Below the pieces are notes generated by a model. It worked only from the letters and a program-made list of their open reading frames with translations. It was not told the origin of the DNA and did not search any database. Below are positions 14,266 to 38,286 of a stretch of DNA of 45,218 nucleotides, one piece after another (the stretch's first letter is position 1; each line of letters starts with the position of its first letter). This DNA is from an uncultured Leifsonia sp. (GTDB taxonomy: Bacteria; Actinomycetota; Actinomycetes; Actinomycetales; Microbacteriaceae), in contig NZ_CAMFLC010000032.1 of the NCBI RefSeq assembly GCF_945957465.1, forward strand, positions 1 to 45,218, written 5' to 3'. Made by a program: the position numbers and the translations under genes.

Positions 14266-14279
14266 TAATAGTACTGTTA
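14266..14279. promoter_or_regulatory. AGTACT palindrome upstream of parA
   Basis: TAATAGTACTGTTA, 22 bp before the parA start. One of seven related sites between 14266 and 17442, each near the 5' side of a minus-strand gene. Probable shared operator. Confidence 0.6.
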
Positions 14280-14363: not shown

Positions 14364-14750
14364 TCAGAACGGGGTGTCGTCGTTGGTGTCGGCGGCGGCC
14401 GTCGCGCGCTGGACAGTGACGCTCTGCCCGCGCAGGCTCACGCCGATTTCGTCGGCGCGGACCTCGTGCTGAAGCCGCGTTCCCTGCTCGCCTTTGTACT
14501 CGGTGATGCGGTAGCTGCCGGAGAAGGTCACGCGGATGTTCCCGCCTGCCTCGGCCGCGTCCACGAGGTTCTGCGCCTGGTTGCCGCTCACGGCGACGTC
14601 GTAGGCCGTGGCCGGACCGTCGCTGTAGGAGCCATCCGACTGACGGATGCGGTCGCTCACGATGACGCGGGCGTAGGTGTACGGGCCGTGCTCCCCCTCC
14701 CGGAGCGTGGGCGTCTCGGCCAGGTTTCCAGTGCGAGTGATGTAGCTCAT
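14364..14750 (-). CDS. ssb: Single-stranded DNA-binding protein
   Basis: 128 residues with an OB-fold that starts MSYITRTGNLAETPTLREGE and continues with the strand YARVIVSDR and YDVAVSGNQAQNLVDA. It ends in the acidic tip DDTPF, which recruits partner proteins in other SSBs. A good GGAGG lies 7 nt before the ATG. Plasmid SSBs commonly protect incoming single strands during conjugation. The AGTACT palindrome at 14780-14793 precedes it, as for ardC and parA. It is shorter than chromosomal SSBs, as usual for plasmid copies. Confidence 0.9.
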   Translation of the reverse strand: MSYITRTGNLAETPTLREGEHGPYTYARVIVSDRIRQSDGSYSDGPATAYDVAVSGNQAQNLVDAAEAGGNIRVTFSGSYRITEYKGEQGTRLQHEVRADEIGVSLRGQSVTVQRATAAADTNDDTPF

Positions 14751-14779
14751 TTCGATTCCTCCCAGAATGATGATGACTC

Positions 14780-14793
14780 TAACAGTACTGTTG
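14780..14793. promoter_or_regulatory. AGTACT palindrome upstream of ssb
   Basis: TAACAGTACTGTTG, about 30 bp before the ssb start. Its central AACAGTACTGTT is a perfect 12-bp palindrome. Confidence 0.6.
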
Positions 14794-14815
14794 GGGTTTA
14801 TAGAGTTGCAATGAC

Positions 14816-15052
14816 CTAGTAGCGCTCGACCTCCATCTCTCGCCCGTCCATCTGGGACGGGTACAGCACCCACTCGATGCCGCTGGCCGGGTTGGGGTTC
14901 TCGACGCGCACGCCGCGCACGGGCGAGCCCCATTCGATCGGCCCCAGCTCGTCGGTGACGCGCAGCGGCGTGCGGTAGACGCGGCCGCCGTGGCTGAGGA
15001 TGCGGTCCCCGATCCGCAGGTCTGCGAGTCGAGTGACGATGATCTTGGACAT
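14816..15052 (-). CDS. Small conserved-looking plasmid protein, unknown function
   Basis: 78 residues, mostly beta in character: SKIIVTRLADLRIGDRILSHG, then RVYRTPLRVTDE and VLYPSQMDGREMEVERY. The pattern suggests a small barrel of the kind seen in phage and plasmid accessory proteins; I cannot name a family. The ATG at 15052 has GGGAGA upstream. Two AGTACT palindromes (15080, 15178) lie 5' of it, so it appears to be part of the same regulon as ssb. Confidence 0.65.
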   Translation of the reverse strand: MSKIIVTRLADLRIGDRILSHGGRVYRTPLRVTDELGPIEWGSPVRGVRVENPNPASGIEWVLYPSQMDGREMEVERY

Positions 15053-15079
15053 GGCTTCTCCCATGGAGTGATCTAACGG

Positions 15080-15093
15080 TAATAGTACTGTTA
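15080..15093. promoter_or_regulatory. AGTACT palindrome upstream of the 78-residue protein gene
   Basis: TAATAGTACTGTTA, 27 bp before the start at 15052 and identical to the parA site. Confidence 0.6.
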
Positions 15094-15177
15094 GGGTCGT
15101 TAGGGCTGTTTTCGGTTCCTGCTGGTTTGTGCCGGTAGATGTCGACGGGCCACTTCGCGGCTCTCCGGCCACCTCTA

Positions 15178-15191
15178 ATAGTACTATTACC
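15178..15191. promoter_or_regulatory. Perfect AGTACT palindrome, TAATAGTACTATTA
   Basis: A perfect 14-bp palindrome about 125 bp before the start at 15052 and just after the stop of the gene at 15208. It may pair with the 15080 site as a tandem operator. Confidence 0.6.
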
Positions 15192-15207
15192 GGCGTTGGG
15201 GGTCAAG

Positions 15208-15489
15208 TCACTGGCAGCTGTCACACTGCAGGGCTTCCATCGGGTCGATGGGCACCACGTACTCGGCCGCAGGGGCGCGGCAGTGGGCATCGCCTTCGTC
15301 GTCGCCCGCGGCGTGCGCCTCGATCCACATGTCCGCGCTAGCTGGCTCTCCGATCGCTCGAAGCATCCCCGCTAGGGCCTCGACCTCGCCGCAGCTCAGG
15401 GTCGGTCCCAGGTCGCCTGCCATGTCTCCGGCGGAGAACACCGCCGCGAATCGGGTGACGTCGCTGGTGTTGGTAATGAGTGTGCTCAT
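15208..15489 (-). CDS. Small protein with CDSCQ C-terminal tail, unknown function
   Basis: 93 residues. The body is acidic and helical (CGEVEALAGMLRAIGEPASA, MWIEAHAAGDDEGDA). It ends in EYVVPIDPMEALQCDSCQ, the stop following directly after Gln. The same terminal pattern ends a 30-residue peptide at 39167-39259 (YVVPVDPMDEMGCDSCQ), although the bodies are unrelated. Such a shared end suggests a recognition tail or a metal-binding Cys pair; no known motif fits. The ATG at 15489 has GAGGGAGA upstream. The structured element at 15511-15710 begins 21 bp upstream, so its transcript or promoter region should include it. Confidence 0.75.
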   Translation of the reverse strand: MSTLITNTSDVTRFAAVFSAGDMAGDLGPTLSCGEVEALAGMLRAIGEPASADMWIEAHAAGDDEGDAHCRAPAAEYVVPIDPMEALQCDSCQ

Positions 15490-15510
15490 CGTTCTCTCCC
15501 TCTCCCTCAT

Positions 15511-15770
15511 GTTTTTTGCCGGGAAGGCACGTAGTGCCGTTCAGGGAAAGCGGTTGGAGTGCAACCCGCAGGGCGGCTGGGGAGAGAATTTCCGCGCGAA
15601 ATAAGGGAGCTTGCGACCGCGTGCGGAAAATCTCGGCGGAGCTGGCTCCCGGAGGGAGCTTGCGCGGAGGCCGCCGACCGCAGAATGCCGCAGGCTTCCC
15701 GGCAAAAGACAGGGGCCGAAGGCCGTACAGTCGGCCGGCTCCGTCCGGCCGTCCGTTGTCGGCGCCGGCT
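15511..15770. repeat. GNA-hairpin structured element A (paralogue of 17461-17720)
   Basis: A non-coding element with a 13-bp closing stem (TTTTGCCGGGAAG 15514-15526 with CTTCCCGGCAAAA 15695-15707). Inside are a second 10-bp stem (TTTCCGCGCG 15589-15598 with 15620-15629) and hairpins with GNA triloops: GGCAC-GTA-GTGCC, CCC-GCA-GGG, GCTCCC-GGA-GGGAGC and GCC-GCA-GGC; GGCC-GAA-GGCC follows. Larger GC hairpins continue to about 15770. The copy at 17461 keeps the folds with compensatory changes. GNA loops are on the plus strand, the template strand of the gene downstream. Confidence 0.75.
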
Positions 15771-15800
15771 CCGTCCGACGCCGACCGCTCTGGACGGGGT

Positions 15801-16010
15801 TCAGTCGAAGCCGGGACCGAAATTGTCGGTCCAGCATTGCGGGTGAATGCCGGTTCGGATCAGCTCGCGTTCCGCGGCCGGCCTCGTGGGGGCGGCGTCC
15901 TGGATCAACGCGCCCGCGCGCAGCGCGGCGGCCTCCGCGGCCGGGAGCTCGACAACGCTCGACCGGTGACAGAACATGCATGCGGGTGTGATGTGCGTCT
16001 CGGTGGTCAT
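15801..16010 (-). CDS. Small protein with a Cys-x-x-Cys knuckle, unknown function
   Basis: 69 residues. The N-terminus has ACMFCHRSSVVELP, a zinc-knuckle-like C-x-x-C, with another Cys in HPQCWTDNFGPGFD at the end; together these could hold one metal. The middle is Ala-rich helix. Actinobacterial phages and plasmids encode many such short zinc-ribbon proteins. The start follows GGAGGAC closely. A degenerate copy of the AGTACT palindrome (16019-16032) precedes it. Element A lies past its stop. No function can be assigned. Confidence 0.65.
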   Translation of the reverse strand: MTTETHITPACMFCHRSSVVELPAAEAAALRAGALIQDAAPTRPAAERELIRTGIHPQCWTDNFGPGFD

Positions 16011-16018
16011 GAGTCCTC

Positions 16019-16032
16019 CAATAGTGGTGTTG
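16019..16032. promoter_or_regulatory. Degenerate copy of the AGTACT operator
   Basis: CAATAGTGGTGTTG: same position relative to the gene and same outer bases, with the AGTACT core changed to AGTGGT. Perhaps a weak or decayed site. Confidence 0.4.
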
Positions 16033-16140
16033 GGGTTAGTCGGCGGCGAGGTCGTAGCCGCCGAGCGGAGAGCGGCCGGGGACGTGGCGGCGTCCGTGCC
16101 ACGCCTCGACGGCGGCGCTCTCGTTGTCGGTGATAACGTG

Positions 16141-16488
16141 CTAGGCGCAGCGCGGGCAGTTGGCCTGATATCGGCCGCCGCCGGGCAGTGGGGCGGCGGT
16201 GTGGTCGTGGTCGGCCTCACGGCACCAGGCGTCCGCGGTGAACATGTGCAGCTCGTGACCCTCGGTGACGGTGGGGCCGCCGCCGTAGTGGGCGGAGTGC
16301 CACATGTGGCTGCGGGGGATGCAGCCGAAGTGCCCGTGCTCGGCGCAATAGCGCTCGAACGCGGCGACCAGGGCGGCGGGTTCGTAGTAGTCCGCCGTGT
16401 AGTTGAGGGGTGCGCCATCCCAGGGGGTAGCCGCGACCGCCTCGCGCTCGAATTCGGCCAGGTCGAACAGGGTGGGCTCGTCGGTCAT
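16141..16488 (-). CDS. Cys/His-rich protein, possibly cut short by an in-frame TAG
   Basis: 115 residues, unknown family: MTDEPTLFDLAEFEREAVAA, a Cys/His-rich centre (RYCAEHGHFGC, SHMWHSAHYGGG) and an end at ANCPRCA. The frame continues past the TAG at 16141-16143 for about 34 more sense codons (HVITDNESAAVEAWHGRR through GGYDLAAD) to a TAA at 16036-16038. That extension looks coding in character, and CPRC.HVI...E.AAVEAWH would be a natural zinc-ribbon ending. Either the gene carries a recent nonsense change (CAG to TAG would do it) or the tail is a remnant. The start has GGAGG 8 nt upstream. Confidence 0.65.
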   Translation of the reverse strand: MTDEPTLFDLAEFEREAVAATPWDGAPLNYTADYYEPAALVAAFERYCAEHGHFGCIPRSHMWHSAHYGGGPTVTEGHELHMFTADAWCREADHDHTAAPLPGGGRYQANCPRCA

Positions 16489-16500
16489 TGCATTTACCTC

Positions 16501-16514
16501 CAACAGTACTATTA
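16501..16514. promoter_or_regulatory. AGTACT palindrome upstream of the Cys/His-rich gene
   Basis: CAACAGTACTATTA, 12 bp before the start at 16488 and abutting its ribosome site. Also directly after the ardC stop. Confidence 0.58.
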
Positions 16515-16517
16515 GGG

Positions 16518-17408
16518 TCAGACGGTGGCGGGCTCGGCCGCGGGCTCGGGCTCGGTGAGCGCGTCCGCGAGAGTGTGCGCGGCACGCAGCACGTTTGCCG
16601 CGGTGGCCTTGATGGTGTCGGCGTCGCAGTTGCTCCACCCGGCGACGTAGCCGACGCTGTAGGCGCTGGTGTCCAGTCCGAGAATGCCGGCGACGACGTA
16701 GGCGACACTCTCGGCTTCGGTTTCCTTCACGCCGCGGTGCTCGATGTACTCGGCCTGATCCTCCTCAGCGTGCAGGATCGCGTGCGCTGCCTCGTGCAGG
16801 GCCGTCTTGGCTGCCTGGGCGGGGGAGAGGTTCGCGTCGATGACGATGCGTCGGGCCTCGGGGTCGGTGTAGCCGTTGGCAGCTCCCGCGATGGGCTCGC
16901 GCTCGACGGTCCAGCCGGTGCCGGTGAGGTAGTCGGCGGTGGCCTCGAAGATGCCGCGGGCGTCGTCTCCGGTGAGCGGTCGCGCGATGTCGGCCGGGTC
17001 GCCAGCTTCCTCGTCGATGAGGTCGGTCTGTCCCATGTCGAACACGGCGACGGGGAAGAACCGCACGCGGCGCTGTTCTTCTTCCTCGCCGGTTCGCTCG
17101 TTCTCGACCGTCTCGCGAATCTCGCGGCCGCCAAAGATGCGGATACCGCGCTCGCCCTTGCGCACCTGGCGGTTGAGCTTCTGCCAGGTCCGGTATCCGG
17201 CGACGTGGGTCGCCTCGGGCCGCTGGGCGAAGATCAGCAGCAGGTTTCCCAGGCTGTAGCGGTGGAACGACTGGGCGAAGTTCAAGAACGCCGCCCATGC
17301 CTCGGACTCGCGCAGCGCCTCGACCTGTTCCGCGATCGTCGCTTGCAGCCCCTCGGCCTCGGCACGACGCTCCTCGGCGCTCCTGGTGCTGGTGATCTTA
17401 CGGGCCAT
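16518..17408 (-). CDS. ardC: ArdC-like antirestriction protein (ssDNA-binding domain plus zinc metallopeptidase domain)
   Basis: 296 residues. The N-terminal ArdC-type ssDNA-binding domain shows FHRYSLGNLLLIFAQRP, VAGYRTWQKLNRQVRKGE and RGIRIFGGR. The C-terminal half holds the HEAAH zinc motif (KTALHEAAHAILHAEE), with a possible third ligand in ETEAESVAYVV. ArdC proteins shield incoming DNA from host nucleases during conjugation. The start has GGAGG 8 nt upstream. Upstream lie an AGTACT palindrome (17429) and then structured element B. Position and content fit a leading-region gene expressed early after entry. Confidence 0.88.
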   Translation of the reverse strand: MARKITSTRSAEERRAEAEGLQATIAEQVEALRESEAWAAFLNFAQSFHRYSLGNLLLIFAQRPEATHVAGYRTWQKLNRQVRKGERGIRIFGGREIRETVENERTGEEEEQRRVRFFPVAVFDMGQTDLIDEEAGDPADIARPLTGDDARGIFEATADYLTGTGWTVEREPIAGAANGYTDPEARRIVIDANLSPAQAAKTALHEAAHAILHAEEDQAEYIEHRGVKETEAESVAYVVAGILGLDTSAYSVGYVAGWSNCDADTIKATAANVLRAAHTLADALTEPEPAAEPATV

Positions 17409-17428
17409 CTCGCTACCTCCGGTGACGG

Positions 17429-17442
17429 TATTAGTACTATTA
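17429..17442. promoter_or_regulatory. AGTACT palindrome upstream of ardC
   Basis: TATTAGTACTATTA, 21 bp before the ardC start, between it and structured element B. Confidence 0.6.
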
Positions 17443-17460
17443 GGGCCACTCAGACCCCCT

Positions 17461-17720
17461 CCACGTTTTCTTGCCGTGAAGGCACGTAGTGCCATTCAGG
17501 GCAGAGGAGGGAGTGCAACCCGGAGGGCGGTGGGGGAGAGAGTTTTCGGCCGATGTGAGGAGCGCAGCGACGCGGCCGAAAAGTCTCGGAGGAGCCGGCG
17601 GCGCAGCCGCTTGCGCGGACGACGAGGCCCGTAGAATGCCGCAGGCTTCACGGCGAGAAAACGAGCGCCGCAGGCGCGAGAGACAGCCGGCCGCGTGCGG
17701 CCGTCGTTCACGGCTCACAG
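17461..17720. repeat. GNA-hairpin structured element B (paralogue of 15511-15770)
   Basis: Same plan as element A: closing stem TTTTCTTGCCGTGAAG (17466-17481) with 17645-17660, and second stem TTTTCGGCCG (17543-17552) with CGGCCGAAAA (17573-17582). Its GNA hairpins are GGCAC-GTA-GTGCC, CCC-GGA-GGG, GCGGC-GCA-GCCGC, GCC-GCA-GGC and GCGCC-GCA-GGCGC. The block GGAGTGCAACCC (17510-17521) is identical in A, and in inverted orientation at 38981. No reading frame is conserved between A and B, so constraint on structure is the better explanation. Confidence 0.75.
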
Positions 17721-17765
17721 GGTCGCGGGGGCGCCGGCCCTCGTGTCGGCCGGCGGCCGACTCTC

Positions 17766-19748
17766 TCAGGCGATCCGCTCGGCTCCCAGCATCGTGTCGA
17801 CAGGATCGGGCTCGATCGATCGGCGGCCTTTGCTCGCCGTCGATGCCGTAGCCGCGCCGCTCAGCAATGCACGTGCCATCCGGAAGTCGGCTCGACCGTT
17901 AGCGTCCCGCGGGTGTGCGCCGTAGGCGTTCGTTCCCAAGTCGGGGAGGAGTGCGAGCTGGCCAGGTCCGGGTCGGCGGCTCGGGTGGGTGCGGCGTGGG
18001 GCACGCATCCACGTCTCCTCGGCCTGCCACCACGCCCACAGCTCGCGCTCGACCGCGTAGCGGGCTGCGCGCGCCTGCAGTCGGCCGTCGACGTCGAGCT
18101 GCACGGCGGCGGCTCGACGGTAATCCACCGATCGCCGTCGCCATCCGTGGCGGGTGAGGACGAGAACACCGGCACGGGTGAGCCGATCGAGGGCCGGCCG
18201 CACCTGGTCGACGGTGCATCCTGCGGAACGAGCGAGCGCGTGAGCGGCTTGAGGATCCGTTGTGGTGCGGGCGTACATGTTCCCCGCGTGGAAGCCGAGC
18301 CCCGGTCCCAGCGTGAAGAGGTCGTGGGCGGCGTCCCGGGTTCTCTGGGTCAGGGTAGCCAGGAGGGTGGATCGTTCTGCGGACCCTGCCCCTGCGGGGC
18401 GCGGGTCCGCTTGTGACCGGCTTGTAGATGCAGGGCTGGGGATAACCGATTGAGGGTCGATGGTCCAGTGCGCACCATGTGGGCCATCGGCAGCGCGGGC
18501 CTGGGTGATCCAACCGTCCGCGGCGAGCCGTAGGAGCGCCGTTCTGGCCGTCTCCCGGCCGATCCCGGCCAACAGGGCGAGGCGGCGGGTATCGGCCTCC
18601 AGAGACGCGCTGAGGGCTTTCAGGGCGAGCATGCACAGGACGTCGAGCACGCGGCGGTCGGTGGGGCCGCCACCGTGGGCCCACCGACCGCCGGCGACGT
18701 CGGCGTGGGCTTGCAGCTCGCGGACGTGCGCGGCGATCGCGTCGGCGCGAGCGTCGAAGGTGGGGTCATCTCCGACCTGGCGGTCTGTGGTGGCCACAAA
18801 GCGCACGGCTTTATCCCATTGGCGGCGGAGGACGTGTGCAGCTCCTCCGCGGCCGCGGGGGCGTCGGTGGAGGCGGTCGCGGTAGGTACGGACGTGCTCT
18901 AGTCCTGGTGCGTCGTCGACAAGTGCAGCGATGTCGGCGTGACGCCATCGGGCGGCCGCCGCGCCGACGAGGATGCGCCAGAGGACTGCGGAGGCGTCAC
19001 CGGAGGCGGCATCTTCGCGAAGTGCGGCCGCGCTGCCGGCTGTGAGCTCGCGGCGCGGGCCGGGCAGGTATAGCCGGCCGTGCTCGTCGACAGGGATCGG
19101 GCGCTTGGGGTCGATGCGTCCGGTCGGCTCGGCGTCGTCGACGAGCTTGGCCAGGGCCTCGACGAGGGCGCGCACCTGCGCGGCCGTGGTCGTGGGGGCG
19201 GTGAGCGTGTCCAGCTCGCCGCGCAGCACGGTCGAGCGGCCGCCGTCGCGGTGGGGCGCACCTGGTGGGCGCAGGCACCCGGTGTCCGGGTTGCTGAGCG
19301 GAGACGTGTCGAGCGTGGGGCACAGGTGCTGGGTGAGGCGCGCGAGGGTGGCGATGGTCTCGGCGTCGACGCTCTCAGAGAGAGCGGCCCAGACGTGACG
19401 GCCGTGTGAGGGGCCGGACTCGCAGAGGACGTGCTGAATGCCGGCGTCCGTGAGGAGGCCGGCGATCACGTCGGCGTCACGAGCTGCCGCGGCCGCGGCA
19501 CCGGGGGTCTTGGCATCGAGGTCGAAGCCGAGGAGGCGGAAGCGCCGATCGGCGCCGGCAAGGTACACCGCCCACGGGCGTGTGGGCTCGTCGCCGTTGA
19601 CCCGGCGGTTGCCGACGTAGCGGTTCACGACGTCGCCGTAGGCGTCGACGACAGCGACGCGCACGCGATCGCGAGGGCTGATGCGGGTGGTCAGCTCCCA
19701 TGCGTGGGCGGCGTCAGCGGACACGCTAGAGAGCGTGTAGCCGCGCAA
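17766..19748 (-). CDS. Plasmid replication protein with AEP-type primase domain
   Basis: About 660 residues. The N-terminal region looks like an archaeo-eukaryotic-type primase/polymerase: FDLDAK (metal acids, residues 75-80), SGPSHGRHVW (111-120) and LRPPGAPHRDGG near residue 160. The middle includes a winged-helix-like stretch (LALLAGIGRETARTALLRLAADGWI) and the end is basic. No helicase P-loop is seen. It is the only replication-type gene here, so it is the best candidate initiator/primase. The start is uncertain: a TTG at 19748 gives the longest form but has no good ribosome site; a GTG ten codons in is possible. A structured leader lies upstream. Confidence 0.68.
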   Translation of the reverse strand: MRGYTLSSVSADAAHAWELTTRISPRDRVRVAVVDAYGDVVNRYVGNRRVNGDEPTRPWAVYLAGADRRFRLLGFDLDAKTPGAAAAAARDADVIAGLLTDAGIQHVLCESGPSHGRHVWAALSESVDAETIATLARLTQHLCPTLDTSPLSNPDTGCLRPPGAPHRDGGRSTVLRGELDTLTAPTTTAAQVRALVEALAKLVDDAEPTGRIDPKRPIPVDEHGRLYLPGPRRELTAGSAAALREDAASGDASAVLWRILVGAAAARWRHADIAALVDDAPGLEHVRTYRDRLHRRPRGRGGAAHVLRRQWDKAVRFVATTDRQVGDDPTFDARADAIAAHVRELQAHADVAGGRWAHGGGPTDRRVLDVLCMLALKALSASLEADTRRLALLAGIGRETARTALLRLAADGWITQARAADGPHGAHWTIDPQSVIPSPASTSRSQADPRPAGAGSAERSTLLATLTQRTRDAAHDLFTLGPGLGFHAGNMYARTTTDPQAAHALARSAGCTVDQVRPALDRLTRAGVLVLTRHGWRRRSVDYRRAAAVQLDVDGRLQARAARYAVERELWAWWQAEETWMRAPRRTHPSRRPGPGQLALLPDLGTNAYGAHPRDANGRADFRMARALLSGAATASTASKGRRSIEPDPVDTMLGAERIA

Positions 19749-27832: not shown

Positions 27833-29330
27833 TTCAACTCAGGAAGGCCCTCGGACCTACGGCAACTGGCGGCGTCCGACGTCGCCGGGCCTGCTTGGTC
27901 TGGGCACGGTGGGTACGGGGCTGCTGTTCGTGGCCCTGTTCGCGATCCTGATCGCGCTCATGTCCGCCGGCATCCTGGCAGCGCTGATCACCGCGGCGAT
28001 CGCGGGCGGTCTGCTGCTCCTCCTGGTGCTTAAGAACGCTGATGGGCGCAGTGTCCTCTCCCGCGCCTCGAACCGGATCGGATGGTTCTCTGCCCGTTCG
28101 CGCGGGACGCACCTGTACCGGTCCGGTCCTTTGGGCCGCACCGAGTGGGGCACCTACCAGCTTCCCGGCGTTGCGGCAGCGACGCGGCTTAGCGAGCACA
28201 CGGACTCCTACGGCCGTCCGTTCGCGCTCGTCTACACGCCCGTCAGCAAGACCTACGCCGTGGTGATCGGGACCGAGCCTGACGGCGCGTCGCTGGTCGA
28301 TCCGTTGCAGGTCGACACCTGGGTTGCCGACTGGGGTCACTGGCTGTCCCACCTGGCCGACGAGCCGGGTATCGAGGGCGCTTCGGTCGTAATCGAGACG
28401 GCCCCGGAGTCCGGCACCCGCCTGCGTCGTGAGGTCGAGCTGAATCTCGACCCGGACGCTCCCGAGTTCGCCCAGGCGATGCTGCGGGAAGTCATCGACA
28501 CTTACCCCGCGGGCTCGTCGACGGTGAAGGCGTTCGTGACGCTGACCTTTAACGCGATCCCGCGCAAGGGTGCACAGCCTCGCAAGCCGGACGAGATGGC
28601 GCGCGAGCTCGCTGCGCGCCTGCCCGGTCTGACCGGCAACTTGCAGGCCACCGGGGCGGGGGCTGCTCGCCCGCTCGCGGCGCAGGAGTTGTGCGAGACG
28701 ATCCGGATCGCCTACGACCCGGCGGCAGCACAGCTCATCGACGAAGCGCACGCCCAAGGTGAGACGCCCGAGCTGTCGTGGCCGGATGTCGGGCCGACCG
28801 CGCATCAGGCGTCGTGGGCGGACTACCGCCACGATTCTGCGACGTCGGTCACCTGGGCGATGACGCAGGCTCCGCGGGGAACGGTGCAGTCGGGTGTTCT
28901 CGCCCGGCTGCTGGCCCCGCATCGGGATATCGCTCGCAAGCGGGTGACGATCCTCTACAAGCCGATCGATCCGGCCCGTGCGGCCGGACTCGTGGAGTCG
29001 GACCTGACGGCCGCGCAGTTCCGTGCCAGCGCGACGCGGAAGCCGCAGGCGCGTGACACCCTCGCGGTGCGCGCCGCGGCCGCGACCGCGCAGGAGGAGG
29101 CATCCGGCGCCGGGCTGGTGAACTTCGCAATCTTGGTCACCGCGACGGTGCTCGACCCGGCCAGGGAGCCGGAGGCGGCCGCCGCGATCGACAACCTGTC
29201 GGCCGGTGCGCGCCTGCGCGTGCGCCGGGTGTACGGGTCGCAGGACTCGGCTTTCGCGATGGCGCTGCCGTTGGGGCTGATCCCGACCAAGCACGTTCAG
29301 GTTCCCTCCACGCTCCGGGAGCGGGTGTGA
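27819..29330 (+). CDS. SCO6880-family conjugation protein
   Basis: 503 residues. Two membrane spans near residues 25-75 (a PrgI-like anchor) are followed by a large soluble part with GRTEWGTYQLPGVAAATRLS, YTPVSKTYAVVIGTEPDG and YRHDSATSVTWAMTQAPRG. I recognise this as the SCO6880 family, which always precedes the VirB4-like ATPase in actinobacterial integrative and plasmid transfer loci. It has no P-loop. The GTG (27819 or 27822) follows GGAGGGAGG. It probably couples the ATPase to the membrane channel; that role is inferred from synteny. Confidence 0.8.
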   Translation: MVAVDSTQEGPRTYGNWRRPTSPGLLGLGTVGTGLLFVALFAILIALMSAGILAALITAAIAGGLLLLLVLKNADGRSVLSRASNRIGWFSARSRGTHLYRSGPLGRTEWGTYQLPGVAAATRLSEHTDSYGRPFALVYTPVSKTYAVVIGTEPDGASLVDPLQVDTWVADWGHWLSHLADEPGIEGASVVIETAPESGTRLRREVELNLDPDAPEFAQAMLREVIDTYPAGSSTVKAFVTLTFNAIPRKGAQPRKPDEMARELAARLPGLTGNLQATGAGAARPLAAQELCETIRIAYDPAAAQLIDEAHAQGETPELSWPDVGPTAHQASWADYRHDSATSVTWAMTQAPRGTVQSGVLARLLAPHRDIARKRVTILYKPIDPARAAGLVESDLTAAQFRASATRKPQARDTLAVRAAAATAQEEASGAGLVNFAILVTATVLDPAREPEAAAAIDNLSAGARLRVRRVYGSQDSAFAMALPLGLIPTKHVQVPSTLRERV

Positions 29331-33486: not shown

Positions 33487-34260
33487 GTGGACCTCACCAG
33501 CTCGTACGAACGATTCGTCCCCGAAGCGGTTCGCGCTCGCTACACCTTTACCGAGACACGCAACGCCGCTGCGGTCCTCTGGGCGACGAACACCGACCTA
33601 TTCGACGAGGTTGTTGCGTCGCTCGATGAGTTTCAGTTGAAGGCGGACGACCTGGTGAATCCTGGTGGCCAAGAGTCACAGCTGGCCAAGCGCTTCAACA
33701 CGGCGCTGCGTTCGCGCGGGTGGCGCGAGGCGCGCGTAGACACGGAGATTGAGCTCAAGCTGCGCATCATGCCTTACCGCCCGGATGGAGAGCGGGAGGC
33801 AACTGTCACCAGCTCGACCGTCTCGAACCGCGGCTACAAGGTGGACAACTTCAAGGGCCGGGTCGCTCTCGACTTGGAGTGGAACGCGAAAGACGGCAAC
33901 CTCGACCGAGATCTCGGCGCGTACCGGGCACTGTTCGATGCGGGCCTCATCGACGCAGCGGTGCTCGTCACTCGGACACAGGATGATCTACGCGCATTCG
34001 GCTACCAGCTTCGCATTGGTGTCGGAATACCGGAGGCTGAGGCTCGCAAGGTACTGGGCACGACCACGACTACTAACCTCGACAAGCTGCTGCCACGCTT
34101 GACGCGCGGGGACGCTGGCGGTTGTCCGGTGTTGGCCGTGGCCATCAACTCGACCACGTGGGATGGTGAGCCAGCCACGCCCCCTTCCTCGCTCGCGGAC
34201 ATTCACGACGAGCCGGAAGAGGACAACGCGATCGACGACACGGACACGTTGGACGAATAG
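33487..34260 (+). CDS. BglII/BstYI-family type II restriction endonuclease
   Basis: 257 residues. The centre carries YKVDNFKGRVALDLEWNAKD and then DRDLGAYRALFDAGLIDAAV, matching the BglII/BstYI pattern: an acidic residue, a V-A-L-D-L-E strand, WN-x-KD, then D-R-D-L. BglII cuts AGATCT and BstYI RGATCY, so a GATC-containing target is likely. The last 50 residues are acidic and loose. It has a GTG start and is followed 43 bp later by a methyltransferase gene on the same strand, completing a restriction-modification pair. Such systems stabilise plasmids by killing cells that lose them. Confidence 0.82.
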   Translation: MDLTSSYERFVPEAVRARYTFTETRNAAAVLWATNTDLFDEVVASLDEFQLKADDLVNPGGQESQLAKRFNTALRSRGWREARVDTEIELKLRIMPYRPDGEREATVTSSTVSNRGYKVDNFKGRVALDLEWNAKDGNLDRDLGAYRALFDAGLIDAAVLVTRTQDDLRAFGYQLRIGVGIPEAEARKVLGTTTTTNLDKLLPRLTRGDAGGCPVLAVAINSTTWDGEPATPPSSLADIHDEPEEDNAIDDTDTLDE

Positions 34261-34277
34261 ATCCAATACGGGTAACT

Positions 34278-34297
34278 AGATCTTTGTTTGCTAGGGT
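34278..34297 (+). promoter_or_regulatory. Candidate methyltransferase promoter containing AGATCT
   Basis: AGATCT (34278-34283), the BglII-type target, sits just upstream of TAGGGT (34292-34297), a plausible actinobacterial -10 box. Seven bases later is the GTG at 34304, so the mRNA could be leaderless. Methylation of this site could feed back on the promoter. Confidence 0.4.
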
Positions 34298-34303
34298 GTG
34301 CTT

Positions 34304-35164
34304 GTGACGAGCGCCGCCCTGAGTATCGATCAGACCCCAGACATCGCCCCCCTGCCGACGGTCGAGGGAGGCTTCCAGACGGTTCTGGCCGACCCGCCGT
34401 GGCGCTTCACGAATCGAACGGGCAAGGTCGCGCCGGAGCATCGGCGGCTGGATCGCTACAGCACGATGGATCTTGACCAGATCAAGGCGCTTCCGGTTGG
34501 TGACGTCACAGCCAAGAACGCCCACCTTTACCTCTGGGTGCCCAATGCCCTCTTGCTTGAAGGAATCGAGGTGCTACAAGCGTGGGGGTTCCGCTACGTC
34601 TCCAACATCATTTGGGCGAAGCGCCGCAAGGACGGTGGGCCGGACGGTCGCGGCGTTGGTTTCTACTTTCGCAACGTCACCGAGCCGATCCTCTTCGGTG
34701 TCAAGGGTTCCATGCGCACCCTGGCACCGGCTCGCTCGACCGTCAACATGATCGAGACTCGTAAGCGCGAGCATTCCCGGAAGCCCGATGAACAGTACGA
34801 CCTCATCGAGTCGTGCTCACCCGGCCCCTACCTGGAGATGTTCGCCCGCTACGCGCGGGAAGGTTGGAGTGCATGGGGCAACGAGGCGGACGCCGAGGTT
34901 GTCCCGAAGGGGCAGAGTTACCGCGGCTATGCCGGTGGCGAGCTTGAACGGGTCCCGATGTTGGAGCCCCACGAGCGCACTAGCGAGTGGCTGTCCAATC
35001 GCATCGCCGGCATCTTGGCCGACGAGTATGAGCGTGGCACGAGCATCCACACGCTTGCTCAGGACACTGGGTACAGCATTCAAAGGGTGCGCACCCTTCT
35101 CGACCGCGCCGGAGTCAAAAAACGGAACCGCGGCCGGCCCGCGAAAACAGCCGTCGCTTCCTGA
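34304..35164 (+). CDS. MT-A70-family adenine-N6 DNA methyltransferase
   Basis: 286 residues. The catalytic DPPW motif is in VLADPPWRFTN; further MT-A70 landmarks are LYLWVPNALLLEGIEVLQAW, IIWAKRRKDGG and the SAM-site strand near EMFARYAREGWSAWGNE. A C-terminal helix-turn-helix (IHTLAQDTGYSIQRVRTLLD) ending in basic KKRNRGRPAK resembles an AT-hook-like DNA contact. It should protect the target of the BglII-like enzyme upstream. The GTG at 34304 is preferred over GTG 34298 because AGGG lies 7 nt upstream; a leaderless mRNA is also possible. Confidence 0.85.
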   Translation: MTSAALSIDQTPDIAPLPTVEGGFQTVLADPPWRFTNRTGKVAPEHRRLDRYSTMDLDQIKALPVGDVTAKNAHLYLWVPNALLLEGIEVLQAWGFRYVSNIIWAKRRKDGGPDGRGVGFYFRNVTEPILFGVKGSMRTLAPARSTVNMIETRKREHSRKPDEQYDLIESCSPGPYLEMFARYAREGWSAWGNEADAEVVPKGQSYRGYAGGELERVPMLEPHERTSEWLSNRIAGILADEYERGTSIHTLAQDTGYSIQRVRTLLDRAGVKKRNRGRPAKTAVAS

Positions 35165-36169: not shown

Positions 36170-37867
36170 CTATCGTTCCGGGCCGCGCTCTGCGCCCGGC
36201 CCCGTCCTCTGTCGTGGCTTCGTCGGTTCGATGTTGTTCGGGACCGGCGACGGCGCCGCGGTGGCCGGCTGGCCCTGCCCGGCGCGGAGCCGATCGAGCA
36301 TCGCCTGTGTCTCCGGGTCGAGCGTCGCGGCCGGCGCGGCCGTCGTCGACGACGCCTCGGTGCTGACCGCCGGTAGGGCGTCGCGTACGCGCGTGAGACG
36401 CGCCCGCACGTCCTCGGCCAGGAGTCGCGCCTGCCGGGCCTGCTCGGCGGCCTGTGCGGCCTCGTACACCGCCTGGGTGAGGCGGAGGAGCTGCCGAATC
36501 ATGGCAGCCTGCGCCACCGTGCCCTGACCGCCGCGCGCGGCGCTGGCAAGCAGCATCGCCGCCCCGGAGATGGCGGTCGTTCCGGCACGGTGCGGCCGCA
36601 CGGTGCGCGTGTAGGTCTGCGCCGATCGGGACAGTGCCTCCGACGCCGCGGCGAGGTCGCCGGGCGTCTCCTCGGTCGCGTTGGACCAGGCCGCGAATGC
36701 GCCGGCCGTCTGTCGCGCGACCGTGGCCCACGTGTCTCGGTCGTCGACGGGCACCGACCGCAGCCGGTCGGCGAGCTGCCGCAGCTCGTCGTTGCGCCGG
36801 CCCCACAGCTCGGGGTCCGGCTCCTGCGTCTCGGCTCCCGGTGCGACCACGCGGCGGCCGCGCTTGGCGGCGTTCCACTCCGCGGCCGCGTCGCTCGCCC
36901 CGGTCGGTGTGTCCGGCCATCCGTCGCGCAGCCGGGGCAGCGTCAGGTCGCGGCCAAGGTGGCCGCCGCCGTACCAGATCGGCCGCTCCCCGGCCGCGGG
37001 TCGTTCGGCCACCGAGTAGCCGGTGATGACGTCGGTTCGCCCGTCCGCGTAGCGAGGACGAACCAGCAAGCCGGTGCGACGCATGCGCCGCACGAACTCG
37101 GCTTCGTCGCCGGCCGCGCTCGCGCATCCTCGCACCTTCAACGCCAGCAGGTAGCGGGGCTGATCGGTGCGCAGCTCGGCGCTGATCCGAGCCTGCCGGT
37201 CCGGGCCGGTCAGGTGCTCCCAGCGTGGGGCGTTATCGCCGAACTGCGGGCGGGTGCGTTCGTACTTCGCGCGTGCTCGCGACCGTGCCTGAGCCTCCCG
37301 CCCGGCCGGGTCGTACCCGCGTGTGGAGCGCTCGGCGCGCACCGATTCCAGCTGCTCCAATCCGTACTTCACTTCAAGCGCTCGGGCCGCGACCTGGGCG
37401 CGGTGGAAGTCGTTGTGGATCGATGCCTTGGTGCCGTCCTCGCGAACCAGGTTCACGGCGATGTGGATGTGGTCGTTGCCGTTCGAGGACACACCATGAC
37501 GGACGGCAACCCACCGACACGGGGCCTTTGTGCCCTCGTTGCTGTCGAACTCCATCGCCGTGATGAAGTCGTTAGCGATCTTCCCCCAGTCCTCATCCGT
37601 GAGCATCCCCTCGTCGGCGCGCAGCGACAGCGAGCAGTGCCACACGTGACCGCCCGGAACCTCGACGCCGAACGCGGCCCGCGGCTTGTCCAAGTGACGC
37701 GCGATCGACAGCGCCGCGTCGCGTCCGAGCTCCGCGTCATCGTGCCACGCCATCAGCGCCGGATCGCCCGCGACCAGGTGCGGTTCGGTGTGCTCGTTCG
37801 ACCGGCCTGGGCCGGTGAGATACGTCATCAGTCCCGACATGCGATCGCCGCGGACGACATTCGGCAT
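36170..37867 (-). CDS. MobA-type conjugative relaxase
   Basis: 565 residues. The N-terminal relaxase domain (residues 1-150) has motif I around VRGDRMSGLMTYLTGPGRSN, with a Tyr as candidate nucleophile, and motif III HIHIAVNLVREDG supplying the metal-binding His pair. The rest is helical and Ala/Arg-rich, with a final Pro-rich tail. It should nick oriT and be carried with the transferred strand. The ATG overlaps the MobC stop by 1 bp. Motif pattern and MobC partner place it in the MOBP-like group found in actinobacteria; the subgroup is not certain. Confidence 0.87.
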   Translation of the reverse strand: MPNVVRGDRMSGLMTYLTGPGRSNEHTEPHLVAGDPALMAWHDDAELGRDAALSIARHLDKPRAAFGVEVPGGHVWHCSLSLRADEGMLTDEDWGKIANDFITAMEFDSNEGTKAPCRWVAVRHGVSSNGNDHIHIAVNLVREDGTKASIHNDFHRAQVAARALEVKYGLEQLESVRAERSTRGYDPAGREAQARSRARAKYERTRPQFGDNAPRWEHLTGPDRQARISAELRTDQPRYLLALKVRGCASAAGDEAEFVRRMRRTGLLVRPRYADGRTDVITGYSVAERPAAGERPIWYGGGHLGRDLTLPRLRDGWPDTPTGASDAAAEWNAAKRGRRVVAPGAETQEPDPELWGRRNDELRQLADRLRSVPVDDRDTWATVARQTAGAFAAWSNATEETPGDLAAASEALSRSAQTYTRTVRPHRAGTTAISGAAMLLASAARGGQGTVAQAAMIRQLLRLTQAVYEAAQAAEQARQARLLAEDVRARLTRVRDALPAVSTEASSTTAAPAATLDPETQAMLDRLRAGQGQPATAAPSPVPNNIEPTKPRQRTGPGAERGPER

Positions 37868-38286
37868 CACGACGCTGCACCGCTCAGCTCGTCGACGAAT
37901 GCGTCGATCCGATCGGCAACCTCGCGGACCTTCCGCAGCGTCACCACCATCTCAGCCTGCACGTCGCCGGTCGCGTTCGTCGCCTTCGCCATCTGGTTCA
38001 CGTTGTTCGCGATCGTGGCCAGGAGCCGGTGCGTGGAGAACATCTGAGCGATGACCTCGTGCCGCACCGACGCATTCGACGCGGCGGCCGCAGCTCCTCC
38101 GGCGAGAGCGGAGTCCACAAGCAGCTTGGGCACGCTCACCTTGTACTGCAAGGCGAGCGCGAGAAGCTGCCCCTCCTCCTCCGGAGTGACGCGGACGACA
38201 TGACGGTGCCGGCGGCCGCCCTCGACGCGACGGCGGCGTGCCTGGCGGCGGGGCTCCTGCTCCCCCGCGCTGTCAGAAACGGCCAT
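37867..38286 (-). CDS. mobC: MobC-like relaxosome protein
   Basis: 139 residues: a basic N-terminus (RRQARRRRVEGGRRHRH), a strand HVVRVTPEEEGQLLALAL of ribbon-helix-helix type, and the MobC signature helix LLATIANNVNQMAKATN. MobC proteins melt DNA at oriT and help the relaxase. It is the first gene of the mobilisation operon and reads away from the candidate oriT, the standard arrangement. Confidence 0.85.
   Translation of the reverse strand: MAVSDSAGEQEPRRQARRRRVEGGRRHRHVVRVTPEEEGQLLALALQYKVSVPKLLVDSALAGGAAAAASNASVRHEVIAQMFSTHRLLATIANNVNQMAKATNATGDVQAEMVVTLRKVREVADRIDAFVDELSGAAS

What the first reader, a model, noticed from the sequence alone, without database searches (positions are those of the whole stretch)
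15511..17720. Two paralogous GNA-triloop hairpin elements upstream of leading-region genes, candidate ssDNA promoters or structured RNAs
Seen: elements A (15511-15710) and B (17461-17660) share order and spacing of parts. Closing stems covary (GCCGGGAAG/CTTCCCGGC in A, GCCGTGAAG/CTTCACGGC in B), as do second stems (TTTCCGCGCG vs TTTTCGGCCG, each with a matching partner) and one inner hairpin (GCTCCC-GGA-GGGAGC vs GCGGC-GCA-GCCGC). Nearly every loop is GNA. No reading frame is conserved. Known: GNA triloops make very stable DNA mini-hairpins; F-like plasmids use folded ssDNA (Frpo) as promoters for leading-region genes. Inference: A and B lie 5' of minus-strand genes (B before ardC) and carry GNA loops on the plus strand, the template strand and the predicted transferred strand, so they may start early transcription in the recipient.
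Basis: partly seen in the sequence, partly recalled or inferred. Interest (0 to 1): 0.86.

Follow-up and report, generated by a model that had tools for sequence, protein, structure and literature searches.

The report
Folded single-strand DNA elements preceding plasmid genes
Two look-alike stretches on an actinobacterial plasmid belong to a family that appears to fold up in the single DNA strand passed between cells, just ahead of the first genes the newcomer needs, and may switch those genes on before the second strand is made.

Summary
Elements A (15505-15715) and B (17460-17665) are two copies of a ~210-nt non-coding family of actinobacterial conjugative plasmids. Neither matches Rfam at gathering cut-off. 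BLAST finds A in 84 and B in 71 plasmid records. In 79 distinct copies, 86% of cells in 66 pairs are Watson-Crick, against 26-35% slid. In 33 aligned copies, 43 of 70 pairs change on both sides, against 17-23 slid. GNA loops: 251 of 395 hairpin positions.

The start codon of the leftward gene lies a median 29.5 nt from the closing stem (76 of 79 copies); its commonest Pfam match is ArdC (21 of 76). The GNA strand is opposite to the relaxase gene on 16 of 16 informative contigs, hence the inferred transferred and template strand. No -10-like TANNNT lies at the stem foot (0 of 79; 6.7 in shuffles).

Best reading: a single-strand DNA promoter, Frpo-like in role, without detectable Frpo homology or boxes. 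Promoter activity and nick strand are untested. EGeRS1 of pLS20 is the nearest published layout; there the transferred strand is reported as non-template.

The parts
15505..15715 (+). Element A (folding strand = +)
   Evidence: BLAST, profile and covariance matches; covariation
17460..17665 (+). Element B (folding strand = +)
15510..15526 (+). A closing stem P1, left arm, AT-rich base next to the ribosome-binding site of the leftward gene; pairs with 15695-15711
15695..15711 (+). A closing stem P1, right arm
15526..15538 (+). A hairpin H1, loop GTA
   Evidence: sequence
15565..15573 (+). A hairpin H2, CCC-GCA-GGG
15584..15634 (+). A long arm; its tip carries the family signature AAATAAGGGAGC..GCGACCGCG
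15645..15659 (+). A hairpin H4, GCTCCC-GGA-GGGAGC
15687..15695 (+). A hairpin H5, GCC-GCA-GGC, abutting P1
15714..15724 (+). A right-flank mini-hairpin GGCC-GAA-GGCC
   Evidence: sequence; flank statistics
17464..17481 (+). B closing stem P1, left arm; pairs with 17646-17663
17646..17663 (+). B closing stem P1, right arm
17481..17493 (+). B hairpin H1, loop GTA
   Evidence: sequence
17519..17527 (+). B hairpin H2, CCC-GGA-GGG
17538..17587 (+). B long arm (17538-17552/17573-17587), tip GC-GCA-GC
17598..17610 (+). B hairpin H4, GCGGC-GCA-GCCGC
17638..17646 (+). B hairpin H5, GCC-GCA-GGC, abutting P1
17665..17677 (+). B right-flank mini-hairpin GCGCC-GCA-GGCGC
   Evidence: sequence; flank statistics
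15208..15489 (-). Gene directly downstream of A, no Pfam match, probably heads the ssb operon
14382..14744 (-). SSB-like domain (approximate; 33.2 bits, below the curated cut-off of 194)
   Evidence: NF005851 E=5.6e-8 on residues 183-303 of the frame 14364-15290; an SSB is annotated at the matching place of the Leifsonia plasmid
16518..17408 (-). ardC (ArdC N domain + M78 peptidase), downstream of B
36170..37870 (-). Relaxase (PF03432), same strand as the leading genes, opposite to the folding strand
37867..38286 (-). MobC; oriT expected just beyond 38286 (inferred, not mapped)
27852..29279 (+). SCO6880-family T4SS ATPase

Best explanation
A and B are single-strand DNA elements. In the donor's double-stranded plasmid they are silent (inferred). 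During conjugation the transferred strand (the + strand here, inferred) enters 5' end first from oriT, and each element folds into a closing stem holding a branched rod of GNA-capped mini-hairpins, with further mini-hairpins on its 3' side (fold prediction and covariation shown; formation in the cell inferred). GNA hairpins are unusually heat- and nuclease-stable in DNA, so the fold should survive coating by SSB (inferred). The fold recruits RNA polymerase without a canonical -10/-35, and RNA starts at the AT-rich foot of the closing stem, using the already single-stranded + strand as template. That gives a 5' leader of some 20 nt with the ribosome-binding site, and early synthesis of ArdC, SSB, ParB-like, glutaredoxin and other establishment proteins (inferred). 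Second-strand synthesis destroys the fold and shuts expression off (inferred from Frpo). In function this is an Frpo-like single-strand promoter; in sequence and build it looks like a separate family.
For: Covariation: 43 of 70 pairs with two-sided changes, against 21 in shuffles and 17-23 slid, 33 copies; Watson-Crick fraction 0.86 against 0.26-0.35 slid, 79 copies. Strand: over 66 pairs predicted from either strand, G.T 195 against A.C 57; cluster-weighted 2.6, bootstrap 1.9-3.9 at 90% identity. Loops: GNA 251, GNYA 9, GNRA 5 of 395 hairpin positions; GNA and GNNA are the loops of the extraordinarily stable DNA mini-hairpins (PMC4686876, passages), whereas RNA favours GNRA (recalled). The 75-nt right flank carries 87 GNA and 4 TNC of 152 triloop hairpins in 78 copies; the coding left flank 7 and 10 of 135 in 79. 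Geometry: start codon 18-39 nt from the stem in 58 of the 76 copies with an ORF (79 examined); of 39 copies with a rightward ORF, 3 have it within 60 nt. Gene content: ArdcN 21, glutaredoxin 9, DUF3846 8, ParB_N 7, DUF3560 2 of 76. Orientation: folding strand opposite to the relaxase gene on 16 of 16 contigs with both (8 with PF03432, 8 with TrwC) and for 22 of 23 copies on 11 annotated plasmids with a relaxase or MobC gene, window included (the window and the Mycetocola plasmid, whose element is also in G149, overlap the contig set). SCO6880 T4SS gene over cut-off in 20 of 25 element-bearing against 2 of 20 element-free genomes (the 20 were the listed non-matching genomes, not a matched sample). 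No TANNNT in the stem foot (0 of 79; shuffle mean 6.7) nor in the spacer to the start (0 of 78).
Against: No transcription data. No -35/-10 was found, so how polymerase would bind is unknown. The transferred strand is inferred from relaxase position; no nick site was mapped. 5 of 25 element-bearing genomes have no SCO6880 match, and 11 of 25 (G035, G090, G126, G132, G147, G150, G173, G185, G203, G222, G248) have no PF03432 or TrwC relaxase near an element on the same contig, so orientation is untested there. One weak copy (L167:5093-5150, E=1.5e-5) has the opposite orientation. In the window itself and in G217:C3 the elements lie on the leading side of the relaxase only if the contig is closed to a circle, which was not shown for the window (no terminal overlap). 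The wobble excess loses significance when clustered at 75% identity (0.84-3.82, 6 clusters), and unpaired columns alone would predict about 1.5:1 (my arithmetic). Helices 2 and 3 are weakly supported (51.5% and 63.2% paired). The EGeRS1 elements of pLS20, very similar in placement, were judged not to be ssDNA promoters (PMC8708921, section 4.1).
Confidence: 0.55

Rival explanations
1. A structured mRNA leader: the genes are transcribed from further right and the minus-strand RNA folds just before the ribosome-binding site, controlling translation or termination. It may also block read-through, as EGeRS1-B does.
For: The closing stem ends shortly before the ribosome-binding site; the minus strand also folds better than shuffles; EGeRS1-B in native orientation stops transcripts from an upstream promoter (PMC8708921, passages).
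Against: G.T exceeds A.C on the + strand, the wrong way round for a minus-strand RNA. Loops on the minus strand would be TNC. No promoter to the right was found: 71 of 78 right flanks of 150 nt have no TA...T at all (70% of shuffles) and 0 of 78 have one with at most 4 mismatches (2.4% of shuffles, so this second figure alone says little). A promoter further away is not excluded.
Confidence: 0.15
2. A single-strand initiation site: the folded transferred strand is where a primer is laid (by RNA polymerase or by the plasmid's own primase-like protein) to make the second strand.
For: Frpo does both jobs (title of Masai and Arai 1997, seen only in reference lists). A primase-polymerase-like gene lies beside B (17766-19748; AEP-TOTE at E<=0.05 in 8 of 8 aligned members).
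Against: Several copies per plasmid, most fitted to a start codon, are not needed for priming; a primer needs no ribosome-binding site.
Confidence: 0.13
3. A non-coding RNA transcribed from the + strand.
For: Wobbles and conserved unpaired purines would fit RNA of that strand as well as DNA.
Against: Its promoter would have to lie inside the 5' end of ardC or another gene (not searched for); loops are GNA, or GNYA more often than GNRA; no Rfam match at gathering cut-off; the placement relative to the opposite-strand start codon would be unexplained.
Confidence: 0.07
4. A double-stranded operator or cruciform bound by a plasmid protein.
For: Palindromic sites (TAATAGTACTATTA) do sit in the same region.
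Against: Compensatory changes keep pairing while the stem sequence changes; in several distant copies the closing stem has another sequence, and the two strands differ in loop and wobble type.
Confidence: 0.05

Closest known systems
Frpo / ssi single-strand promoters of F and ColIb-P9
   Same: Upstream of ssb and anti-restriction leading genes; folds in the transferred strand, which is the template (PMC9849209 and PMC11541004, passages); F has the same gene order relative to oriT. The F Frpo1 and Frpo2 regions each hold one 7-bp GAA hairpin on the transferred strand, at the end far from the gene.
   Different: No detectable similarity to the F leading region (best profile E=1.1). Frpo restores canonical -35/-10 boxes, here not found. 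Apart from that one GAA hairpin, the F regions show no GNA triloop of stem 4 or more; here GNA hairpins make up the element.
EGeRS1 of Bacillus plasmid pLS20
   Same: Repeated structured element ending at the ribosome-binding site of ardC and other establishment operons, without a sigma-A promoter (PMC8708921, section 4.1, figure legends and passages).
   Different: 400-600 bp; no GNA hairpin among the 9 with stem >=5 in the stretches taken; no profile match; its transferred strand is reported as non-template, the reverse of what is inferred here.
Phage N4 virion RNA polymerase hairpin promoters
   Same: Promoter is a hairpin in the template strand with a three-base loop holding a sheared G:A pair; SSB favours it (PMC4496689, passages).
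   Different: One short hairpin read by a phage polymerase; here ~210 nt with many hairpins, and no phage-type polymerase was seen among the window proteins scanned.

Membership tests
Frpo/ssi single-strand promoters | Lies in the leading region upstream of leading genes | tested here: met
   ArdC, SSB operon, ParB-N downstream (annotations 12-19, 47-54); at least one element on the upstream side of the relaxase gene on 14 of 16 contigs; the window and G217:C3 need circular closure
Frpo/ssi single-strand promoters | Transferred strand is the template strand | tested here: inconclusive
   Inferred from relaxase orientation, 16 of 16 contigs; nick site not mapped
Frpo/ssi single-strand promoters | Stable fold of the transferred strand | tested here: met
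   (prediction and covariation)
Frpo/ssi single-strand promoters | Fold restores -35 and -10 boxes | tested here: not met
   0 of 79 copies with TANNNT in the stem foot (shuffle mean 6.7); 0 of 79 with <=3 mismatches to TTGACA/TATAAT in the foot region or the whole element, though the whole-element mean (5.95) is slightly better than shuffles (6.50)
Frpo/ssi single-strand promoters | Sequence homology to known Frpo | tested here: not met
   Profile against the F leading region only, best E=1.1
Frpo/ssi single-strand promoters | RNA made from single-stranded template by host RNA polymerase | not testable with these tools
   needs in vitro transcription
EGeRS1 | Sequence family of 400-600 bp in Bacillus plasmids | tested here: not met
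   no profile match in the pLS20 stretch; about 210 nt here
EGeRS1 | Directly upstream of ribosome-binding sites of establishment operons, no housekeeping promoter found | tested here: met
Known structured RNA family (Rfam) | Match to a covariance model | tested here: not met
   0 at gathering cut-off in the window; at E<=5 in 15400-17900 two sub-threshold matches: 17664-17704 (-), which overlaps the last two bases of B and its right flank (18.7 of 37 bits), and 16992-17072

The most novel reading that the evidence does not exclude
A single-strand DNA promoter class of Gram-positive conjugative plasmids that works without -35/-10 boxes: the polymerase is placed by a three-dimensional DNA fold of GNA mini-hairpins and purine internal loops, so that early genes are expressed only while the plasmid is single-stranded.
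Probability: 0.42. Interest if true: 0.92.

Novelty: new variant of a known kind. Interest (0 to 1): 0.8.

Why it matters
Single-strand promoters are known from enterobacterial plasmids. In two papers whose passages I saw they are found by similarity to a handful of Frpo sequences or by -35/-10 boxes in intergenic regions (PMC11541004, PMC12826799), a search that would miss this family. If it works as proposed, it explains how actinobacterial plasmids make ArdC and SSB on arrival, gives a sequence-and-structure marker for leading regions in plasmids that are poorly typed (45 of 84 and 39 of 71 host records are called non-mobilizable), and would be a large natural DNA structure kept by selection for its fold in single-stranded DNA.

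Tried and rejected
Rfam at gathering cut-off and at E<=5: nothing useful. Scan of viral contigs with the signature pattern: 0. DNA-parameter RNAalifold kept only the closing stem, so RNA-parameter consensus structures of both strands were used for pair counts, and the 66 pairs they share for the strand test. The covariance model R1 (core only, 17 pairs) found 6 of 394 genomes of the class with strict filters; it is a weak structural test and was used only for locating copies. F Frpo and pLS20 EGeRS1 as possible homologues: no match. The EGeRS1 stretches were placed from gene ends, one (D) is cut short, and they aligned poorly, so their wobble count (49 pairs) is not used. Defence families downstream: one PADLOC match in 76 proteins. 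Solved structures for the primase-like protein: 0 matches. Rows dropped before counts: 43 of 143 profile matches were partial and left out of the 79-copy set, and 100 full-length matches collapsed to 79 distinct sequences from 63 loci; 3 of 79 copies had no acceptable ORF; the orientation count uses only contigs holding both features. G217:C3 is counted although element and relaxase are more than 60 kb apart on the linear contig; the pair on G126:C1 is about 850 kb apart and was left out (it too is opposite). G000:C17 rests on DNA matches, not on R1.
Full report
What is there. The window is one contig (G000:C32) carrying a SCO6880-type T4SS gene, a TraG/TraD-like coupling protein, a MobA/VirD2-like relaxase and MobC, an SSB-like domain, ParA, a ParB-like protein and ArdC. 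The best plasmid hit for both elements is a 52.7-kb plasmid of Leifsonia shinshuensis (97.7% and 95.5% identity over A and B). Elements A and B are non-coding and sit between genes on the minus strand.

Family. BLAST with A finds 84 plasmid records and with B 71, most often Clavibacter, Curtobacterium and Microbacterium. In 249 Microbacteriaceae genomes 36 have a match at E<=0.001, of which 25 are below 1e-10. Titles were shown for 80 of them; they name actinobacterial genera (Clavibacter, Cryobacterium, Microbacterium, Arthrobacter, Nesterenkonia, Dietzia, Gordonia, Brachybacterium, Intrasporangium, Paraoerskovia and others; higher taxonomy recalled) except one MAG labelled Deinococci. In the class as a whole the family looks sparse: 6 of 394 genomes, the window's own included, with a covariance search under strict filters. 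The loci held gave 143 profile matches, 100 full-length, 79 distinct.

Fold. The consensus is a 17-bp closing stem with an AT-rich foot. A hairpin abuts it on each side, inside, and it encloses a rod whose internal loops are purine-rich; the rod carries a long arm ending in the signature (CGCGAAATAAGGGAGC..GCGACCGCG) and two more hairpins. On 33 aligned copies 87.9% of cells pair and 43 of 70 pairs have changes on both sides, against 79.0% and 21 in shuffles and 38-44% and 17-23 when slid. On 79 copies 39 of 66 shared pairs show two or more Watson-Crick types, against 10-18 slid. In several distant relatives (among them Dietzia, Kocuria, Paraoerskovia, Gordonia) the closing stem has another sequence but single-sequence folds show a similar layout (inspected by eye, not scored). 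Two helices are weak (51.5% and 63.2% paired).

Which strand. On the 66 pairs predicted from either strand, G.T mispairs number 195 and A.C 57; by pair, G.T leads at 34, A.C at 18, 14 tie. This favours the + strand as the one that folds. After clustering, the ratio is 2.58 (1.86-3.90) at 90% identity, 2.05 (1.34-3.83) at 80%, and 1.37 (0.84-3.82) at 75% with six clusters. Unpaired columns suggest a background of about 1.5, my arithmetic on the counts, so this is support rather than proof. Loops give a second sign: of 395 hairpin positions 251 are GNA, 9 GNYA, 5 GNRA, 67 two-base, 29 other triloops, 27 other, 7 none. GNA and GNNA loops make extraordinarily stable DNA mini-hairpins (PMC4686876, passages), whereas RNA prefers GNRA (recalled). 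The 75 nt to the right of the element also carry GNA hairpins, 87 against 4 TNC and 61 other over 78 copies (55 of 78 copies have one), while the coding left flank has 7 against 10 and 118 other over 79.

Place. The start codon of the leftward gene is 18-39 nt from the stem in 58 of 76 copies with an ORF, median 29.5 (79 examined); of 39 copies with a rightward ORF, 3 have it within 60 nt. Pfam matches for the 76 downstream proteins are ArdcN 21, glutaredoxin 9, DUF3846 8, ParB_N 7, DUF3560 2 and two single ones besides the M78/DUF6782 peptidase and Glrx-like models; the other proteins have no match. In most of the annotated stretches an SSB gene lies in the same region. No TANNNT occurs in the stem foot (0 of 79; shuffles 6.7) or in the spacer (0 of 78); 71 of 78 right flanks have no TA...T in 150 nt, against 70% of shuffles.

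Transferred strand. Relaxase genes typically lie in the lagging part that enters last (PMC11541004, passages), and leading genes of F use the transferred strand as template (PMC9849209, passages). On 16 of 16 contigs holding both an element and a PF03432 or TrwC relaxase the folding strand is opposite to the relaxase gene (G000:C32, G000:C17, G007, G024, G026 two contigs, G115, G121, G145, G149, G171, G214, G217, G232, G238, G246). The same holds for 22 of 23 copies on 11 annotated plasmids with relaxase or MobC, the window included (with annotations); the exception is a weak match, L167:5093-5150, which itself precedes a minus-strand glutaredoxin gene. Eleven of the 25 element genomes are uninformative. 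SCO6880 is over cut-off in 20 of 25 element genomes and 2 of 20 without. So the + strand here is most likely the transferred strand and the template of ardC and the ssb operon. The nick was not mapped, and the window contig was not shown to be circular.

How it most likely works. Shown: family, predicted fold with covariation, strand preference, position, missing boxes, link to conjugation genes. Inferred: the fold forms on the entering strand, resists SSB, brings in RNA polymerase, and transcription starts at the AT-rich foot next to the ribosome-binding site, ending once the second strand is made. The layout fits a promoter better than a priming site, because most copies are fitted to a start codon; priming may still be a second job, and a primase-like gene adjoins B.

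Compared with what is known. Frpo is the functional model, but Frpo restores -35/-10 boxes, which were tested and not met here, and no sequence relation to the F leading region was found; so this is not filed as Frpo. One parallel: the F Frpo1 and Frpo2 regions each hold a 7-bp GAA hairpin on the transferred strand at the end far from the gene, like the right-flank mini-hairpins here. The closest in layout is EGeRS1 of pLS20: repeated, structured, ending at the ribosome-binding site of ardC and others, without promoter. Its authors argued against a single-strand promoter because the pLS20 transferred strand is the non-template strand (PMC8708921, section 4.1). Here the inferred strand is the template, the size is about 210 rather than 400-600, and the EGeRS1 stretches show no GNA hairpin among 9 with stem >=5. 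I found no paper on this family in ten searches, two of them with the term Clavibacter and one with Actinobacteria (listings seen, six papers opened in part); the library lacks most subscription journals and bioRxiv.

Noticed in passing
window 14266-14279, 15080-15093, 15176-15189, 16501-16514, 17429-17442: Five copies of a palindrome TAATAGTACTATTA (0-2 mismatches, 0 expected by shuffles), all inside the leading region near gene starts, one between B and ardC; exact copies in 12 of 181 fetched loci, three of which are the window itself. Looks like operators of a plasmid repressor, a second layer of control.
   Followed up: partly
window 17766-19748 (-): 660-aa protein beside B with weak archaeo-eukaryotic primase match (8 of 8 aligned members match AEP-TOTE at E<=0.05) and winged-helix matches; relatives are near the element in other plasmids; possibly a replication primase.
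   Followed up: partly
L003:1115-1296, L004, L042, L044, L045, L085, L089, L106, L115, L122: Ten of the 79 copies are a shorter subtype (172-184 nt) that keeps closing stem, first and last hairpin but, in those viewed, has another inner domain (GTGGAATACCGGA...). Two lie on contig C17 of the same genome, one of them about 3 kb from a TrwC relaxase.
   Followed up: no
L122 (MAG labelled Deinococci): Carries a core-only match and a short-subtype copy; perhaps a misbinned actinobacterial contig.
   Followed up: no
window 33487-35164: BglII-like restriction endonuclease with an MT-A70 methyltransferase between the coupling-protein genes and the relaxase.
   Followed up: no
G147:C42, G173:C1, G222:C2, G232:C6: Here the SCO6880-like gene is distant (E 1e-10 to 1e-16) and runs opposite to the element, whereas on 13 contigs with a close SCO6880 gene (E<1e-60) it runs with it; a second T4SS type may use the same elements. 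G238 and G246 (distant, same direction) and G126:C1 (E=1e-56, opposite, 62 kb away) do not fit this split.
   Followed up: no
L170 (F plasmid), Frpo1 and Frpo2 regions: Each has one 7-bp hairpin with a GAA triloop on the transferred strand at the end far from the gene, a possible common device of single-strand promoters.
   Followed up: no
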